Origin: Armatimonadota bacterium
Lineage (GTDB): Bacteria; Armatimonadota; Fimbriimonadia; Fimbriimonadales; Fimbriimonadaceae
NCBI GenBank assembly: GCA_025360125.1
Contig: JANYCU010000013.1
Coordinates: 1 to 64,000, forward strand
Length of the DNA: 64,000 nucleotides
Direction of reading: 5' to 3'
Position numbers and translations under genes: made by a program
In this document: piece by piece, positions 2-6,637 of the stretch
How the letters are laid out: the number at the start of each line of letters is the position of its first letter
Numbering within the stretch: position 1 is the first letter of the stretch
The notes under the pieces: generated by a model
Seen by the model: only the letters and a program-made list of their open reading frames with translations
What the model was told of the DNA's origin: nothing
The model's database searches: none

Positions 2-2668
2 GGCAGAATTACTAAGACCGACGACCCGCTTGCCTACCGCACGACTTATCAGTACGATACGGCTGGCAACCGAACCACGATTATTAACGCCCTAGGTTAT
101 ATCTCGTCGATGGTTTACGATGCGAGCCAAAACATGACCGCGAGCATCGATCCACTTGGACGAAGAACAAGCTTCACTTATGACTCGTTTGGACAACGAT
201 TAACCAGCCAGGATCCAAGAGGACTAACGACTTCGTTCCAATACGACTCCACCGGGAACCAAACGACATTAACCCATTCAGACGGCAGTGTCGTCACTCA
301 AACCTTTGATACCTTTGGAAGACAATTAACCTCGACCGATCCGCTCGGACGGACGACGAGTTACGGTTATGACGTTGCCGACCACGTCGTTTCCATCACA
401 AATGCCGCGGGAGAAATGTCGCGAACGATTTACGACACGTGTCTGCCTACGGTTAAGATCACTCCGATGGATCATCGAACCACGATGACCTACGGTCGGT
501 TCGCAAATGTCCTCACCACTCAAGACCCGCTGGGTAATGTCTGGACTCAAACTTATGACAAAATGGGCTACCAAACGTCTACCATTGATCCGCTTGGTAG
601 GACCAACACGATGGTCTACAATGTCGCCAAGCAACGCACTGCCAGCCAAGATGCTCTAGGCTACATTACCAGCTACGCTTATGACAATGCTGGACGCCCA
701 AACGGGGTGCAAGATGCCCTTGGCAATCGATCGACAACTATTTACGATGCACGCGATGCTGTAGCCTCGCAAGATGCCATAGGCAATCGAACCACCCAAA
801 CCTATGATGCTATCAGGCGGAAGACTGTGACAATTTCCTCCCTTGGAATTGCACAAACTACAATTTATGACGCCTCCAATCAAGTATCCGCAACTATCGA
901 CGCACTCGGGTATCGGACCACGAATACATACAATGCAAACAGTTCACAGATTGAGGTGCAAAGTGCGAATGGAAATCGATCAACTACGGTTTATTCGTCA
1001 AATTCAAATAGGACCATTGCTACTAACGATGCACTTGGCTTTACCATATCCTACACCTATGATGTTGGGGGACAGACGCTTTCGACACAAAACGCATTGG
1101 GATATTACTATTCAAGTTCATACGATCTCGCAGGTCGGCTGAGAACTACGATCGACTCTCTCGGGGCAACAACTACATTCAGCTATGATGCTGACGGCCG
1201 TCAGCAATCTGTACAAAACGCGCTGGGCCGTACGTCTACATCTATCTACGACCAAGTGGGCCGAATGGTCGGAGGCATGAATGCTCTTGGCAATATCTGG
1301 ACAAGCGTTTACGACAATGCTGGTCAAGGAGTTGCCAGCGTTACACCACTCGGCTATCGGTCCACTTCTACTTATGACGGAAAGGGACAAACTCAAACTT
1401 CGCAAAATGCGCTTGGATATGTCGGCACTTTTGCGTACGATCCAGTCGGCAACATGTGCGGATATCAGAATGCAAACGGTAATTGGACGACTACTGTCTT
1501 TGACTCAGTTCGCAGAGACACAGCCGAAATAGATTCCCTTGGACTCGTTAAGACTTATACATACGATTCCGACGGTCGCCGAGTCGAAATACTGGACCCA
1601 CTAGGAGGTCGAATCACTATGGTTTACAGTCCACGTGGTGAACAATTAGCGATCAGTAACCAGACTGGATTCATTACTTCAAATACTTACGGTTCCGTCG
1701 GTGAGACTATAGCTAAACGGTCTGCCGACGGCGATGTGACTACATACCTCTACGACGCTCTGACGAGGCGCACGAACTCTCTGTATGCCGATGGCACAAG
1801 AACCTCGCTCGTATTCGATAGTGTGGGTAGCCTAGTCCAAGCCGAGGATTTCTGTGGGAAAACGACCTTCAGTTATGACTCGCGCCAGTTTGTGACCGGA
1901 AAAACCGATCCAGGAGTCATTGTTCAAAGTTACTTGACGAACAGTGTAAATCAAAGAACAAATTTGATAGAGCCGGGAGGATCTGTGCGAACCTTTACCT
2001 ACGATTCGTTGAGCCGTTTATCAGTCTTTCAGGCTCCCGACGCCTTGTTGACGACTTACCAATACGACCTAGATTCTCGAATGACTACTTCAATCTATGG
2101 GTCTGGACTCAAGCGAGCGCTCGGAGTCGATGGAGAGGGGCAAATCCTGTCGAAAACAGACCGAGACGGATCTGGCGTAATACTACAGGCGATGACGTTT
2201 TGCTATGACCAAATTGGAAACCGAACGGTGATCGTCGATGGGGACAATTTGACGACGTACGGCTATGACGCGAAGAGTCGATTGATATCTGATGTCACTA
2301 GTGGAACCAACGCCCATAGCTATGCCTACTCGTATGATTCGGTCGACAACCGTCTGACCAGTAATGAATCCGGTGTGATAGGCACATGGATGTACGACCT
2401 GTCTGGACGAATTACAACGAGCATAGCTGGGGCGGATATCACTACATATTCTTATGCCCCAAATGGCAATCTTACAGTCACTCGCAATGGCAATAATGTT
2501 ATTACAATGACTTACGATAAGGAGAACCGGATGAGTGTTCACAATGAGGGAGCCGTGTTTACAACCTACGCCTATGCTTATGACGGTCTCAAACGCAATG
2601 AACGGAATGGGTCTTCAATTACAACCTTAGTCTGGGATGGTAGCAGCTATGTTGGAGAAGTGAGGTAA
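2..2668 (+). CDS. RHS/YD-repeat core protein, 5' end outside window
   Basis: The reading frame is open from base 2 with no stop, so the gene begins before the window; 888 residues are visible. They consist almost wholly of YD repeats of about 20-22 residues of the pattern YDxxGRxxxxxDxLGxxTTxxYD. In RHS proteins such repeats form a hollow beta cocoon that encloses a C-terminal domain. The frame ends with LVWDGSSYVGEVR and a TAA stop whose last A is the first base of the ATG of the next gene (TAATG). In intact family members this point continues directly into the DGEI...DALGS segment, so the core and its tip are genetically split here. The final repeats lack the hyperconserved tip and DPxG motif because these lie in the next gene. 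Family assignment is secure; whether the two pieces are made separately or joined by frameshifting is not known. Confidence 0.93.
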   Translation, partial: GRITKTDDPLAYRTTYQYDTAGNRTTIINALGYISSMVYDASQNMTASIDPLGRRTSFTYDSFGQRLTSQDPRGLTTSFQYDSTGNQTTLTHSDGSVVTQTFDTFGRQLTSTDPLGRTTSYGYDVADHVVSITNAAGEMSRTIYDTCLPTVKITPMDHRTTMTYGRFANVLTTQDPLGNVWTQTYDKMGYQTSTIDPLGRTNTMVYNVAKQRTASQDALGYITSYAYDNAGRPNGVQDALGNRSTTIYDARDAVASQDAIGNRTTQTYDAIRRKTVTISSLGIAQTTIYDASNQVSATIDALGYRTTNTYNANSSQIEVQSANGNRSTTVYSSNSNRTIATNDALGFTISYTYDVGGQTLSTQNALGYYYSSSYDLAGRLRTTIDSLGATTTFSYDADGRQQSVQNALGRTSTSIYDQVGRMVGGMNALGNIWTSVYDNAGQGVASVTPLGYRSTSTYDGKGQTQTSQNALGYVGTFAYDPVGNMCGYQNANGNWTTTVFDSVRRDTAEIDSLGLVKTYTYDSDGRRVEILDPLGGRITMVYSPRGEQLAISNQTGFITSNTYGSVGETIAKRSADGDVTTYLYDALTRRTNSLYADGTRTSLVFDSVGSLVQAEDFCGKTTFSYDSRQFVTGKTDPGVIVQSYLTNSVNQRTNLIEPGGSVRTFTYDSLSRLSVFQAPDALLTTYQYDLDSRMTTSIYGSGLKRALGVDGEGQILSKTDRDGSGVILQAMTFCYDQIGNRTVIVDGDNLTTYGYDAKSRLISDVTSGTNAHSYAYSYDSVDNRLTSNESGVIGTWMYDLSGRITTSIAGADITTYSYAPNGNLTVTRNGNNVITMTYDKENRMSVHNEGAVFTTYAYAYDGLKRNERNGSSITTLVWDGSSYVGEVR

Positions 2669-3693
2669 TGGGACTTTCAACCGCTTATTACACCGTCGAT
2701 GGAGAAATTATCGGGGAGTCTACAAATGGACTTCGGCTCGACTATCTGACCGATGCCCTTGGCTCAGTAACTGCGAAAGTAGACCAGACCGGAGCAGTCA
2801 CCTCAACTGCTCGGTACAAACCCTATGGCGATAAACTGGTTGGCTCAATATATACCTTTGGTTGGGTTGGTGCCTACGGATATCGAATCTCAGCAGGTGG
2901 TATATATATTCGAAATCGAACATATGCGTCAGGAGCTGCACGGTGGGGAACCAGAGACAAATTATGGCCAAATGAGTCGCCATATGGCTATGTCTTTGAT
3001 AATCCGATTGTACGCATCGATTATAATGGTCTTAGTCCAACATTGACAAGGACCCGAATAAAATCTAAAACTTTTACGGACGCAGACACCGAGCCTAAAT
3101 GTGGCAATTATGCAGTTAGCTGGAAATTCAAAGTAGCAGATAAGACGAAGCTTAATGGGTGGCTAGTTCAGTGGTTAACCACGATGCGATTTCAAGCAAA
3201 CTGCGGTGAAGAACTCACCGATATTGGTTGCGGCTCCTTCTTTGAAGTTTGGATGGTCAAAGATGGTGAAGTTTATACTCCTGGAGCTGCATATCTCGGC
3301 AACGGGTTTGTTCCATGGGAAAGCTTGCCTCTTGATGATACTTGGAGTGATATCCGTGGCGGGAAATGTAAATTCGGCAGAGAGGTGACTACGGGCTTCT
3401 TAACGTTTGAACCAGACGACACGGTAAATCCATTCCATAATGATTCTGCTAACGAATGGCTGGGAAGACACAATTTCAAGAGAGGGCAACTGTGTAATCC
3501 AAAGGGACTAGTTTCAAAAACCTATGTTTCGAAAGATTGGTCAGCCTACGGATCCTTTGCTGATGATTGGGGATGTTGCAAGAAGGTAGGTACGTGCTCC
3601 GAGGATAGTCTTTGTGACCTATGCCCCACGGTAGGAAAGTGTAATCCGAAAGACGATTGGAATGTTTACCCGAATGACCCAGTATGGATATGA
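2668..3693 (+). CDS. RHS tip plus cysteine-rich C-terminal domain (cassette 1)
   Basis: 341 residues. Residues 1-125 are the conserved end of an RHS cocoon: VDGEIIGES, DYLTDALGSVTAKVDQTG, ARYKPYG, IYIRNRTY, ARWGTRDKLWP and a closing IDYNGL. The last motif replaces the usual DPxGL of RHS self-cleavage (IDPSG in the cassette at 4730). Residues 130-341 form a variable domain with many cysteines, ending in a cluster around CCKKVGTCSEDSLCDLC. It shares GWLVQ, FFEVWMVKDGEVYTPG and NEWLGRHNF with the cassette 2 domain. The start ATG overlaps the stop of the core gene by one base, so translation is probably coupled. The domain could be a toxin, or simply an exported Cys-rich extension; I do not recognise its activity. 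Confidence 0.85.
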   Translation: MGLSTAYYTVDGEIIGESTNGLRLDYLTDALGSVTAKVDQTGAVTSTARYKPYGDKLVGSIYTFGWVGAYGYRISAGGIYIRNRTYASGAARWGTRDKLWPNESPYGYVFDNPIVRIDYNGLSPTLTRTRIKSKTFTDADTEPKCGNYAVSWKFKVADKTKLNGWLVQWLTTMRFQANCGEELTDIGCGSFFEVWMVKDGEVYTPGAAYLGNGFVPWESLPLDDTWSDIRGGKCKFGREVTTGFLTFEPDDTVNPFHNDSANEWLGRHNFKRGQLCNPKGLVSKTYVSKDWSAYGSFADDWGCCKKVGTCSEDSLCDLCPTVGKCNPKDDWNVYPNDPVWI

Positions 3694-4286
3694 ATAGTAT
3701 GATATTAGTGACACTTAGACCGATCAATCTCAACGAATTTCCTTCACCCGTGGAACTTCGCCGTATTTTATTAGACAAGGACTCTTTGGCTACATATAAG
3801 GCTCGCATTGTAAGTGGTAACAAGACTCTGATTCGCCTTTTTTCCATGAGCCGTGTATCACGATTAAAGGAAATTTCTACTTGGTGCAAACAAATAAGAA
3901 CACGCCATTTAGAATTGCAAGCGAAAGGCCTTATGAATGATTACGACTTAAACTTGCTTCGGTACGATCTGGGAAAGCTGGACATTGTCTTTATAAATGA
4001 TTTTGGACGATCCTTCTTTCATTCAAGCAATTGGCTGTACGAGTTATACAACGTCAAACTCAGTGCAAATGGATCCATTGCAAGCCTTTCCGTTCCATCG
4101 TCATTGCCGGTCTTCACAAAACAGAGATCTGGTGCACCGATTGAACCGACACTAGCATCGTTTTCCACTCCGTTTTCTGAAGTGAGTACTTCGTTTTGGA
4201 AGTGGGTTGAATCCGATTTTTCTGGCCCAGTTCCGAGGGAAATGACAGTTAAGAGATTATGGAGCATAACATCAGGTAAAAAATAG
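3690..4286 (+). CDS. Partner (possible immunity) protein of RHS cassette 1
   Basis: 198 residues, no signal peptide and no membrane segment, so probably cytoplasmic. The chosen ATG overlaps the stop of the tip gene as ATGA; an in-frame ATG two codons earlier (3684) is also possible. It is homologous to the partner gene of cassette 2: both have an SP motif followed by a conserved LIR/LVR..F stretch, W..xIRxxH near residues 65-75, and a C-terminal PxEMT motif. A small gene overlapping the end of an RHS C-terminal domain is the usual position of an immunity gene, and the pairing of two related tips with two related partners supports that. Function is inferred from position only. Confidence 0.7.
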   Translation: MNSMILVTLRPINLNEFPSPVELRRILLDKDSLATYKARIVSGNKTLIRLFSMSRVSRLKEISTWCKQIRTRHLELQAKGLMNDYDLNLLRYDLGKLDIVFINDFGRSFFHSSNWLYELYNVKLSANGSIASLSVPSSLPVFTKQRSGAPIEPTLASFSTPFSEVSTSFWKWVESDFSGPVPREMTVKRLWSITSGKK

Positions 4287-4619
4287 GACGCTGCGACAAA
4301 TGGGGCATTTTGTTGACGCAGGTGGTCGGCTGCGCCATTGGACCGTATGGATGGCGAGTCCTACGGAGTTGAGAGTCTATTCAAGGTGAGGGAAGGAACA
4401 ATGATCGAAGCAGGTGCAAAGGATAGTTTTAAAAGATGCCGTTCTCAGTCAAGTCATTTGGCTTTTTGTGATATCGCGGCCGCTACCAGCGATGCTGGCG
4501 AGCAGGTGACGGTGTCGCAAAATGCATTTAAAAGTCGAAACACTCAAATCTTTGAAGCCATCGGGCGAAGAATGGACTCGGCACTATCGATGGATTTCAT
4601 CAATAAAACAAGCCACTAC

Positions 4620-4729
4620 TTGGGCTGGATTCACTCAATCGCGGCACTACCTTTGCGTACAATCCACGCAGAACTGGATTCGGCCACCCTGGTTTGGGAT
4701 GGCGGCACCTATGTTAGAGAAGTTAAATA
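4620..4729 (+). pseudogene. Degraded remnant of an RHS core, upstream of orphan tip
   Basis: Only the last stretch of an RHS core survives. TTFAYN, a YD-repeat fragment at about 4645, is in a different frame from the LVWDGGTYVREVK ending at 4730, so at least one frameshift lies between them. The open frame that runs back to 4338 gives no RHS-like or other recognisable sequence. Its first part contains a relic of the intergenic palindromic repeat seen at 7182 (GAGTTGAGAGTCTA near 4368), so I do not believe it is a real gene as a whole. The TAATG overlap with the next gene is preserved. Confidence 0.6.
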
Positions 4730-5743
4730 ATGGGACTATCGACCGCTTACTACACCGTCGAGGGAGAAATTGTCGGGGAGTCTACAAACGGAATTCGGCT
4801 TGACTATTTAACCGATGCCCTAGGCTCTGTCACGGCTAAAGTTGACCAAACTGCAACTGTCGTCTCTACAGCTAGATACAAGCCATATGGAGGGAATCTA
4901 GCTGGTGCTGATTACACATTTGGATGGGTCGGAAGTCTTGGATATCGAAAATCTGCCAATAGTAGCTCACCAATGTATATTCGAAATCGATCATATTTGA
5001 CGCAGACATCGAAATGGTTGACTGTCGACTCGGTGTTCCCGGTTCAGCCGGCTTATGGTTATTGTCAGGCAAATCCGATAACACATATTGATCCGAGCGG
5101 GGAAGAATGGACAGTCCACCGTCATCTTTACAAGAAAGTGTTTTGGCCTCCAGTCTGTGCGCAATACGATATATTTTGGAGTTTCAGCATCATTCCACAA
5201 AATGCCAGTTCAAGAGGTTGGTTGATACAAAAGGTATTTAATGGTGCTTCCGGAGAATCATGCGTCCCAGGTGGTGACCCTGTTGAAGCCTGTTTGCCCC
5301 CCAGCTACTATGAAGCATGGCTTGTGGTTGATGGTATACCGTACACGCCAAGCAAAGACGTCCAGGGCCAATGGAAACCTATCCCCGCGAAAGATAATTG
5401 GGCCAATCCTGGCTATCCGTGCTCTTGGGGACATGTTTATGTGAGAGGGGAGCTCAAATTTGTGCCCGATCTGACCGCATCACCCAAGGGCAGTAACGAT
5501 TGGCTGAGCCGTCATGGTTTTACAAAGAATTCGAAAAATCCATGCTCTCTGGCACTTCCATCAACGTCGAATTATAGTCCGCAAACAGGTGGCACGTCTT
5601 GGGGTGGATTGGCTGTATTAACAGACGAATTTGCTTGCTGCGCCAGGGAAAAACGTCTTTGTTCAAAAAGGCTTACCAACTGTAAGTGCCAATATGAAGG
5701 TCCATGTTACGAAGACAACCCAAGACTGGAACCGCAAACATGA
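4730..5743 (+). CDS. Orphan RHS tip plus cysteine-rich C-terminal domain (cassette 2)
   Basis: 337 residues. The first 125 are nearly the same as the tip of cassette 1 (VEGEIVGES, DYLTDALGSVTAKVDQT, ARYKPYG) and close with THIDPSG, so here the DPxG motif is kept. The remaining 210 residues are a diverged version of the same Cys-rich domain: GWLIQ, YYEAWLVVDGIPYTPS, NDWLSRHGF, then CC and C-rich sequence to the end. There is no intact RHS core upstream, only a short remnant, so this is an orphan tip of the kind created by cassette duplication. It could replace the resident tip by recombination across the near-identical 125-residue segment. The start overlaps a stop as TAATG, exactly as in cassette 1. 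Confidence 0.85.
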   Translation: MGLSTAYYTVEGEIVGESTNGIRLDYLTDALGSVTAKVDQTATVVSTARYKPYGGNLAGADYTFGWVGSLGYRKSANSSSPMYIRNRSYLTQTSKWLTVDSVFPVQPAYGYCQANPITHIDPSGEEWTVHRHLYKKVFWPPVCAQYDIFWSFSIIPQNASSRGWLIQKVFNGASGESCVPGGDPVEACLPPSYYEAWLVVDGIPYTPSKDVQGQWKPIPAKDNWANPGYPCSWGHVYVRGELKFVPDLTASPKGSNDWLSRHGFTKNSKNPCSLALPSTSNYSPQTGGTSWGGLAVLTDEFACCAREKRLCSKRLTNCKCQYEGPCYEDNPRLEPQT

Positions 5744-6402
5744 TAATCCTACCAATTTATATAATGACTTTAGATTTAAGTATTTTGGAGCGCTTAGCAT
5801 CGCCAACATACCTCGTTGCACAAATTCGGGTCAGCCATTCCGCTATATACCGGACGGAGTTGGTAAGATCTCGGACTCTTGTTCGCCACTTTACCTCCCT
5901 TCCCAAACAACTCAGGCAGCAATTATTTGCCGCTTGGATCAGGGAAATACGGCAAACACATGCAAAAATGGAAAAGAAGTTACCACGCGAGCCAGGCCTT
6001 ACAAAGGGTCCCACGTACTGGACTTTTATGGCTTCCGCCACAAATGCCAAGACTGATGTCACCAAACTCGACGCTTTACTTGACGCTTGCGGCCGTCCAA
6101 CCATTTTTCATACTAGAAGCGAATTGAGACGGATTTATCAGGTTAAGAATTCTTGGGAGGAAACCTTTGATCCTCCAATAAGGACGATTAAGACTCCAAA
6201 TGGTTTACGAGGTTCTACGGGCATAGGCGAATGCTGGTTACCTTCTTTTGATGCATTTTATGCAAGCGAATGCAAAGTATTATTCGCCTGGGCAAGCCGT
6301 GGTTTAAGAGGCAAAATGCCTCCAGAAATGACTTTCGATCTGATGATGGACAAAGTCCAAAGTGCTATCGAGGCAAAAAGCAAACAGAAGGCGATCCACT
6401 AG
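5740..6402 (+). CDS. Partner (possible immunity) protein of RHS cassette 2
   Basis: 220 residues from the ATG that overlaps the tip stop as ATGA; a longer form from 5704 is open but would overlap the tip gene by 40 bases. It is related to the partner of cassette 1: an ASP motif, then LVRHF, AAWIREIRQTH, and a C-terminal AWASRGLRGK followed by PPEMTFD. It is basic in the middle part and has no export signal. Divergence from partner 1 parallels the divergence between the two C-terminal domains, as expected of cognate pairs. Immunity function is inferred from context only. Confidence 0.7.
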   Translation: MIILPIYIMTLDLSILERLASPTYLVAQIRVSHSAIYRTELVRSRTLVRHFTSLPKQLRQQLFAAWIREIRQTHAKMEKKLPREPGLTKGPTYWTFMASATNAKTDVTKLDALLDACGRPTIFHTRSELRRIYQVKNSWEETFDPPIRTIKTPNGLRGSTGIGECWLPSFDAFYASECKVLFAWASRGLRGKMPPEMTFDLMMDKVQSAIEAKSKQKAIH

Positions 6403-6511
6403 TAATGTCTGAAAGACATCTGGTCTCTCAATTGGAGGAGATTTTGACAGCCTTCCAGAGACGTCCGTAGATTCAGAATTGCCACGTTGAACCTATTAAT
6501 ATCTCGTTTAC

Positions 6512-6551
6512 ACCGAGAGGGTTGGGGGTTCGAGCCCCTCATCGCCCACCA
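6512..6551 (+). other. tRNA-like 3' end fragment, possible attachment-site scar
   Basis: The sequence contains a T-arm: a GGGGG stem, a TTCGAGC loop and a CCCTC stem. It is followed by a seven-base ATCGCCC strand, A and CCA, which is the 3' end of a tRNA (or tmRNA) with encoded CCA. The matching 5' acceptor strand GGGCGAT and the rest of a cloverleaf are absent from the preceding 100 bases. It is therefore a fragment, not a gene. Such 3' ends are left where an integrative element used a tRNA or tmRNA gene as target, and it lies directly after the RHS cassettes. No integrase gene is visible. Confidence 0.5.
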
Positions 6552-6637
6552 CTATTTTAGGTTCAAAATAGTACTACGCAGGTCAAACGAACAATCGTTC
6601 CAAAGGTTCGGTCTCTCAAACGCCAAGGAATTAGCCG

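What the first reader, a model, noticed from the sequence alone, without database searches (positions are those of the whole stretch)
2600..6402. Two RHS tip cassettes share a TAATG split from the core and an ATGA-coupled partner gene
In both cassettes the RHS core (or its remnant) ends LVWDGxxYVxEVx followed by TAATG, and the tip starts MGLSTAYYTV. The C-terminal Cys-rich domain then ends at an ATGA overlap with a partner gene of one family. An RHS cocoon is normally one chain across this point. Keeping the same overlap in two diverged cassettes suggests the split is tolerated or used, with translational re-initiation or -1 frameshifting joining two chains. The duplicated tip/partner unit fits cassette exchange by recombination in the 125-residue conserved tip.
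Basis: partly seen in the sequence, partly recalled or inferred. Interest (0 to 1): 0.8.

Follow-up and report, generated by a model that had tools for sequence, protein, structure and literature searches.

The report
Split RHS toxin: shell and tip genes
In these soil and water bacteria (Armatimonadota, Fimbriimonas group) the "RHS" toxin capsule, usually one giant protein, is encoded as two back-to-back genes, a shell and a toxin-bearing tip with its own translation start hidden in the end of the shell gene, so spare toxin tips in tandem arrays can be made as separate proteins instead of sitting silent.

Summary
Both window cassettes have the TAATG split, the MGLSTAYYTV tip start, an ATGA-coupled partner, and partners of one family (E=1e-8). 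It is not a local accident: the same split recurs in 11 tips of this genome and in relatives across Armatimonadota (56 non-redundant split junctions, against 16 fused tips). 54 of 56 junctions lie within -4 to +7 nt, in all three relative frames (31/19/6), with 10 or so stop/start geometries, so no single frameshift or readthrough joins the chains. What is conserved is a Shine-Dalgarno core 5-22 nt before the tip start, written in the shell's last codons (49/54; synonymous-codon expectation 25±3.4). Tips keep both autoprotease aspartates (33/33), and tip N-termini show dN/dS 0.03-0.23, displaced ones included. Best reading: a two-gene RHS in which termination-reinitiation makes shell and tip as separate chains that assemble. 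It works like TcB/TcC, but is cut about 120 residues before the cleavage site and shows no Tc or T6SS parts. Unlike the silent displaced tips of enterobacteria, displaced tips here keep start codons and often the ribosome-binding site, so arrays may be live arsenals sharing one shell. Not shown: expression, assembly, toxicity.

The parts
2..2668 (+). RHS shell gene (YD repeats), 5' end lost at the contig edge; stop TAA 2666-2668
   Evidence: 888 aa, 5' open; Pfam RHS_repeat E=7e-83; 42-43% identical over its last ~400 aa to the intact 1218-aa shell on C56
2624..2668 (+). shell 3' end that doubles as the tip's translation-initiation region: VWDGSSYVGEVR, GGAG at 2654-2657 ten nt before the ATG, then TAATG
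   Evidence: sequence; homology block between cassettes starts here; SD conservation test
2668..3693 (+). tip gene 1 (341 aa): residues 1-122 RHS-associated core with both autoprotease Asp, then Cys-rich C-terminal domain (about 3034-3690)
   Evidence: TIGR03696 E=1.6e-5; A1 alignment
3690..4286 (+). partner gene 1, putative immunity protein (198 aa from the ATGA overlap at 3690; 200 aa from ATG 3684)
   Evidence: no Pfam or NCBIfam match
4686..4730 (+). remnant of shell 3' end in front of tip 2 (TLVWDGGTYVREVK, TAA 4728-4730); weak SD (AGAG); tip frame closed by TAA 4724-4726
4730..5743 (+). tip gene 2 (337 aa): RHS-associated core residues 1-124, Cys-rich C-terminal domain homologous to that of tip 1
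   Evidence: TIGR03696 E=4.4e-8; C-domain vs tip 1 31% identity, E=1.6e-15
5740..6402 (+). partner gene 2, putative immunity protein (220 aa from the ATGA overlap at 5740; an in-frame ATG at 5704 is less likely)

Best explanation
A two-gene ('split') RHS polymorphic toxin. Gene 1 encodes the YD-repeat shell; gene 2 encodes the tip, i.e. the last ~120 residues of the cocoon (RHS-associated core with the aspartyl autoprotease site) plus the C-terminal toxin; gene 3, coupled by ATGA or placed close by, encodes the immunity protein. The end of the shell ORF carries the Shine-Dalgarno and the overlapping stop/start for the tip, so ribosomes finishing the shell re-initiate on the tip and two separate chains are made side by side. 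I infer that they assemble non-covalently into a closed cocoon, the autoprotease then freeing the toxin inside it. Since joining needs no common reading frame, a new tip can be inserted behind any shell 3' end, and the displaced tip keeps a start codon and often the RBS. Shown here: two-ORF architecture, geometry, SD conservation, catalytic Asp conservation, selection on tip N-termini, arrays. Inferred: re-initiation, assembly, toxicity, immunity, sharing of one shell by several tips.
For: Recurrence: 11 split junctions in this genome, 56 non-redundant ones in Fimbriimonadia and relatives, further ones in other families and orders; closed or single-contig genomes included (G026/CP075364, CP021424, G101), so not an assembly artefact. 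Geometry: 54/56 within -4 to +7 nt, the range that supports coupling and is enriched for subunits of heteromeric complexes (PMC10666635). All three relative frames (31/19/6). SD: 49/54 vs 5/54 in the adjacent window; synonymous resampling 25.1±3.4, max 36 of 1000; fused tips 4/13. Asp100 and Asp121 invariant in 33 tips. The tip profile aligns with the stretch ending at the chain end or cleavage site of TccC2 (553-663 of 664), TccC3, RhsP and Tse5, and the shell with RHS cocoons: together the two ORFs cover one RHS protein. Tip N-term dN/dS 0.03-0.23, displaced tips included. One shell >=570 aa followed by >=2 open tips in L064, L067, L072, L087, L090, L096. YenB with YenC1/2/3 is a proven shared shell (PMC11067744).
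Against: No expression, proteomic or assembly data. Window shell is truncated at the contig edge. Some genomes (G007, G010, G005) hold intact tip arrays but no full-length shell of this type, so those tips are unused, work with another RHS protein, or act otherwise. 16 of 109 tips are fused, so the split is not obligatory. Only 22/40 orphan tips keep a recognisable SD. Low dN/dS of displaced tips may date partly from when they were attached. Two split junctions lie at +18 and +26 nt, too far for coupling. The tip model is poor (mean pLDDT 57) and tells nothing of the toxin fold.
Confidence: 0.78

Rival explanations
1. Programmed -1 frameshifting or stop readthrough at the junction yields a single fused RHS chain, the split being only apparent.
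For: TAATG keeps the tip in the -1 frame in the window; most out-of-frame junctions leave more than 9 nt of open overlap; fused homologues exist.
Against: Relative frame is not conserved (31/19/6); slippery heptamer in 1 of 30; window cassette 2 has 1 nt of room; same-frame junctions would need TAA or TAG readthrough (TAAATG, TAGATG, TAGGTTATG); an SD at tip-start spacing is conserved instead.
Confidence: 0.04
2. Ordinary C-terminal displacement as in enterobacterial rhs and cdi loci: split tips are silent reservoir cassettes and only the immunity genes matter.
For: Arrays, shell-end remnants in front of displaced tips, and diverse toxins match the displacement model (PMC2935791, PMC3150448). 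G005, G007 and G010 have tips without a full shell. Lone partner copies exist at C53 and C36.
Against: Enterobacterial displaced tips mostly lack translation starts, whereas here even the tip directly behind a full shell is a separate ORF, and displaced tips keep start codons, often the SD, and purifying selection on their N-termini.
Confidence: 0.15
3. Pseudogenisation or sequencing error: RHS genes broken by frameshifts at a fragile site.
For: Window shell is at a contig edge and remnant cores are present.
Against: Same position in 56 non-redundant junctions with clean stop/start codons, closed genomes, an SD beyond synonymous expectation and low dN/dS.
Confidence: 0.01
4. Tips act alone (secreted Cys-rich toxins or surface proteins) and no longer need the shell.
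For: G005, G007 and G010 arrays lack a full-length shell of this type; tip C-domains are 7.6% Cys and neighbouring ORFs look exported (58/77 vs 17% of control ORFs).
Against: Tips show no signal peptide by eye and keep the RHS core and both autoprotease Asp, which make sense only with a cocoon.
Confidence: 0.1

Closest known systems
TcB/TcC subcomplex of ABC (Tc) toxins, e.g. YenB with YenC1/2/3
   Same: One RHS cocoon made of two separately encoded chains; the C-chain carries autoprotease and toxin; several C-chains, even from a distant locus, can load one B-chain (PMC11067744).
   Different: Here the cut is ~120 residues before the cleavage site; in TccC2 the homologous stretch is 553-663 of a 664-aa chain, so TcC carries over 500 more residues of shell. 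Shells tested match RHS_repeat only, no SpvB or TcdB Pfam domain; no TcA_TcB_BD hit (control silent too).
Rhs-CT displaced or orphan tips (C-terminal displacement, Jackson 2009; Poole 2011)
   Same: Arrays of non-homologous toxin/immunity cassettes behind a shell, with short shell-end remnants.
   Different: There the active tip is one chain with its core and displaced tips mostly lack a translation start; here every tip is its own ORF with start codon, many with the SD.
T6SS Rhs effectors (RhsA, Tse5, RhsP, Tse15, Tre23)
   Same: YD-repeat shell, RHS-associated core, Asp autocleavage motif, toxin, immunity gene.
   Different: Single chain; T6SS delivery, whereas no TssC/VipB was found in six genomes here (positive control rang).
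Bacterial teneurin-like proteins
   Same: Best PDB sequence hits of the tip profile (9ifo, 9pt5); downstream immunity gene (PMC13018210).
   Different: Described as single chains with FN-plug and NHL domains; the shells here show RHS repeats only by Pfam.

Membership tests
RHS polymorphic toxins | YD/RHS repeats in the shell | tested here: met
   PF05593 E=7e-83 window shell, 1e-106 and 2e-119 in intact shells
RHS polymorphic toxins | RHS-associated core (TIGR03696) before a variable C-terminus | tested here: met
   E=1.6e-5 (below curated cut-off, 25.3 vs 32.5 bits) and 4.4e-8 (above) for tips 1 and 2; profile match to solved RHS proteins
RHS polymorphic toxins | autoprotease aspartates of the DPxG...DPxG motif | tested here: met
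   D100 and D121 invariant in 33 tips; cleavage itself not testable
RHS polymorphic toxins | shell and tip in one polypeptide | tested here: not met
   56 non-redundant junctions with stop and new start, all three frames
Tc toxin TcB/TcC | two-chain RHS cocoon | tested here: inconclusive
   two ORFs shown; assembly not testable here
Tc toxin TcB/TcC | SpvB/TcdB-mid domains in TcB and a TcA subunit | tested here: not met
   two intact split shells carry only RHS_repeat in Pfam; PF18276 found in none of 6 genomes, but its control rang nowhere either, so absence of TcA is only indicated
T6SS-delivered Rhs effectors | T6SS sheath in the genome | tested here: not met
   PF05943 absent from 6 genomes incl. 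own, positive control rang in E. coli
Toxin-immunity pair (tip C-domain plus partner) | co-occurring, co-diverging pair downstream of RHS core | tested here: inconclusive
   three homologous C-domains each followed by a homologous partner; activity not testable; no Pfam hit

The most novel reading that the evidence does not exclude
One shell, many live tips: all tips of an array are translated from their own ribosome-binding sites and compete for, or successively close, a common shell, so a single RHS locus delivers a mixed toxin payload. The shell's last ~8 codons would be a triple-use element: protein end, tip RBS and cassette boundary.
Probability: 0.4. Interest if true: 0.78.

Novelty: new variant of a known kind. 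Interest (0 to 1): 0.62.

Why it matters
RHS cocoons are treated as single chains, and displaced tips as silent archives needing recombination to be used. A phylum-scale lineage in which the tip is a separate gene with a built-in RBS changes both: cassette exchange is freed from reading frame, displaced toxins can be expressed, and one shell could carry several payloads. It also offers a natural two-chain RHS cut close to the plug, useful for asking how cocoons close, and testable in culturable relatives.

Tried and rejected
First genome-contig scan with one tip found nothing; a 33-row alignment was too diverse for pattern search; a 12-row subset worked. AlphaFold2 of tip 2 was poor (mean pLDDT 57); Foldseek gave only weak RHS/teneurin hits, best E=0.016, and no fold for the C-domain. 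Pfam found nothing in ten tips or tip C-domains. Window C-domain and partner families occur only in this genome among 113 of the class. Plasmid search: none. Frameshift model rejected. TcA search is inconclusive because its control was silent. Tree of tip cores: separate/fused state needs at least 5 changes (16 fused tips), but 127 columns leave many forks open and the root unknown, so the ancestral state was not called. Full-text searches for Fimbriimonas with 'Rhs repeat' and for 'split Rhs' gave no description of this; the library is partial. No chain was fused or mended for folding; pieces were analysed apart.

Full report
WHAT IS THERE. The window is the first 64 kb of a 136-kb contig in a 4.13-Mb draft genome of 58 contigs. 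Named relatives holding the same tip family are mostly labelled Armatimonadetes/Fimbriimonadaceae. An RHS shell frame, cut by the contig end, runs to a TAA that overlaps the ATG of a 341-aa tip gene (TAATG, 2666-2670); the tip stop overlaps the partner's ATG (ATGA, 3690-3693). A second tip/partner pair follows with the same two overlaps (4728-4732 and 5740-5743) behind ~15 codons of shell end. Partners are homologous (E=1e-8), and the two tip C-domains also (31%, E=1.6e-15). The two cassettes share DNA homology from ~45 nt before the tip ATG to about residue 86 of the tip, so they are relatives, not independent inventions.

THE SPLIT IS A FAMILY TRAIT. Searching the own genome with the tip core gave 18 matches, most in open frames of 267-349 aa rather than one long RHS frame. 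Reading the junctions gave 11 split ones: TAATG (6), TAACATG (2), TAACAATG, TAGATG and TAGGTTATG; one near relative on C55 is fused in a 1,427-codon frame. In the class, 98 of 113 genomes hold the tip profile; at a strict threshold 73 of 291 genomes of the phylum do, outside the class too, and junctions read there are split as well. In all, 109 non-redundant tips were classified by script: 56 split, 40 without a recognisable shell end upstream ('orphan'), 13 fused; three of the 'orphans' (L113, L114) lie in long frames and were counted as fused for the tree, making 16.

GEOMETRY. Start minus stop is 2 nt in 21 cases, 4 in 15, 5 in 7, 3 in 4, and 54 of 56 intergenic distances lie between -4 and +7 nt. 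Relative frames are -1 in 31, +1 in 19, 0 in 6. A mechanism that fuses the chains by frameshift or readthrough would need a fixed frame relation. There is none; only 1 of 30 frame -1 junctions has a slippery heptamer in reach, and in window cassette 2 the tip frame is closed 1 nt before the shell stop. The distances are those at which termination-reinitiation works, and such pairs are enriched for subunits of heteromeric complexes (PMC10666635).

A RIBOSOME-BINDING SITE INSIDE THE SHELL'S LAST CODONS. In 49 of 54 close junctions a Shine-Dalgarno core (AGGA, GGAG or GAGG) lies 5-22 nt before the tip start; the next window upstream has 5 of 54. Resampling synonymous codons of the same shell ends gives 25.1 (sd 3.4, maximum 36 in 1000), so the protein motif does not explain it. 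The same nucleotides arise from different residues (YLGE, YLGA, YLQGR, YLQER, YLSE, YLME). At the homologous position 4 of 13 fused tips have it. In the G101 array (single 2.99-Mb contig; L130) five tips share 25-40 nt ending ...gaaggaggagaagtgATG, after which upstream sequences differ. There the cassette begins with its ribosome-binding site.

TIP, SHELL AND PARTNER. The tip's first ~124 residues are the RHS-associated core; in 33 tips both Asp of the autoprotease motif are invariant. The profile aligns with the last ~110 residues before the cleavage site or chain end of TccC2, TccC3 and RhsP, with a shorter match to Tse5. Shell C-terminal ends match RHS cocoons. Nei-Gojobori dN/dS over the tip N-terminus is 0.03-0.23, displaced tips included; the caveat is that a displaced tip may have diverged while attached elsewhere. 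Tip C-domains average 7.6% Cys, and 58 of 77 ORFs near the tip's end have a hydrophobic N-terminus against 17% of control ORFs. This hints, no more, at toxins and immunity proteins working outside the cytoplasm. Intact shells often follow a NifU_N-like gene, several with a giant GT2-TPR gene before it.

HOW IT MOST LIKELY WORKS. Shown: two ORFs, coupled geometry, internal SD, conserved protease residues, selection on tip N-termini, arrays. Inferred: ribosomes finishing the shell re-initiate on the tip; the chains close one cocoon; the toxin is cleaved inside; the partner protects. The functional analogue is TcB/TcC: YenB is loaded by YenC1, YenC2 and YenC3, the last from a distant locus (PMC11067744). 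Membership in the Tc family is not claimed: tested shells lack TcB domains by Pfam, the cut site differs, and the TcA search was negative with a silent control. No T6SS sheath was found in six genomes; the delivery route is unknown. In enterobacteria displaced rhs tips mostly lack translation starts and are called silent (PMC2935791, PMC3150448). Here each tip has its own start, so displacement need not silence it. Six loci have a shell of at least ~570 aa followed by two or more open tips. Against a simple one-shell-many-tips story, G005, G007 and G010 hold tip arrays but no full shell of this kind.

VERDICT. A real, widespread two-gene form of RHS toxin: a new variant of a known kind. Separate chains: likely. 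Shared loading of one shell by several tips: open.

Noticed in passing
L022:4446-4826, L019:5153-5509, L064:6428-6814, L067:6043-6459, L068:6956-7312 and others: A NifU_N-like gene (PF01592, ~120 aa) sits just upstream of many split RHS shells, often after a giant GT2-TPR gene (1030-1370 aa). Own genome has 6 NifU_N copies, at least four next to RHS loci; G007, without a full split shell, has one. Role unknown.
   Followed up: partly
window 6480-6560: A 59-81 nt repeat resembling the 3' half of a tRNA (GGTTCGAGCCCCTCATCGCCCACCA) just downstream of the cassettes; 9 good copies in the genome, several near RHS genes or contig ends. Possibly an attachment-site remnant; ARAGORN finds no full tRNA.
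   Followed up: partly
G000:C53:64796-65308 (L122) and G000:C36:17681-18193 (L124): Two further partner-family genes without a tip-profile match in the fetched stretches: candidate orphan immunity genes.
   Followed up: partly
G005 (L062), G007 (L066), G010 (L061): Arrays of 3-5 open tips with no full-length split-type shell found in the genome.
   Followed up: partly
tip C-domains in 87 tips; neighbouring ORFs: Tip C-domains average 7.6% Cys; ORFs near the tip end have signal- or lipoprotein-like N-termini in 58/77, hinting at extracytoplasmic toxin targets.
   Followed up: partly
L064:13761-15317, L065: In G018 split tips and fused core-tip fragments lie in one array, so the fused/split state changes on short time scales.
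   Followed up: no
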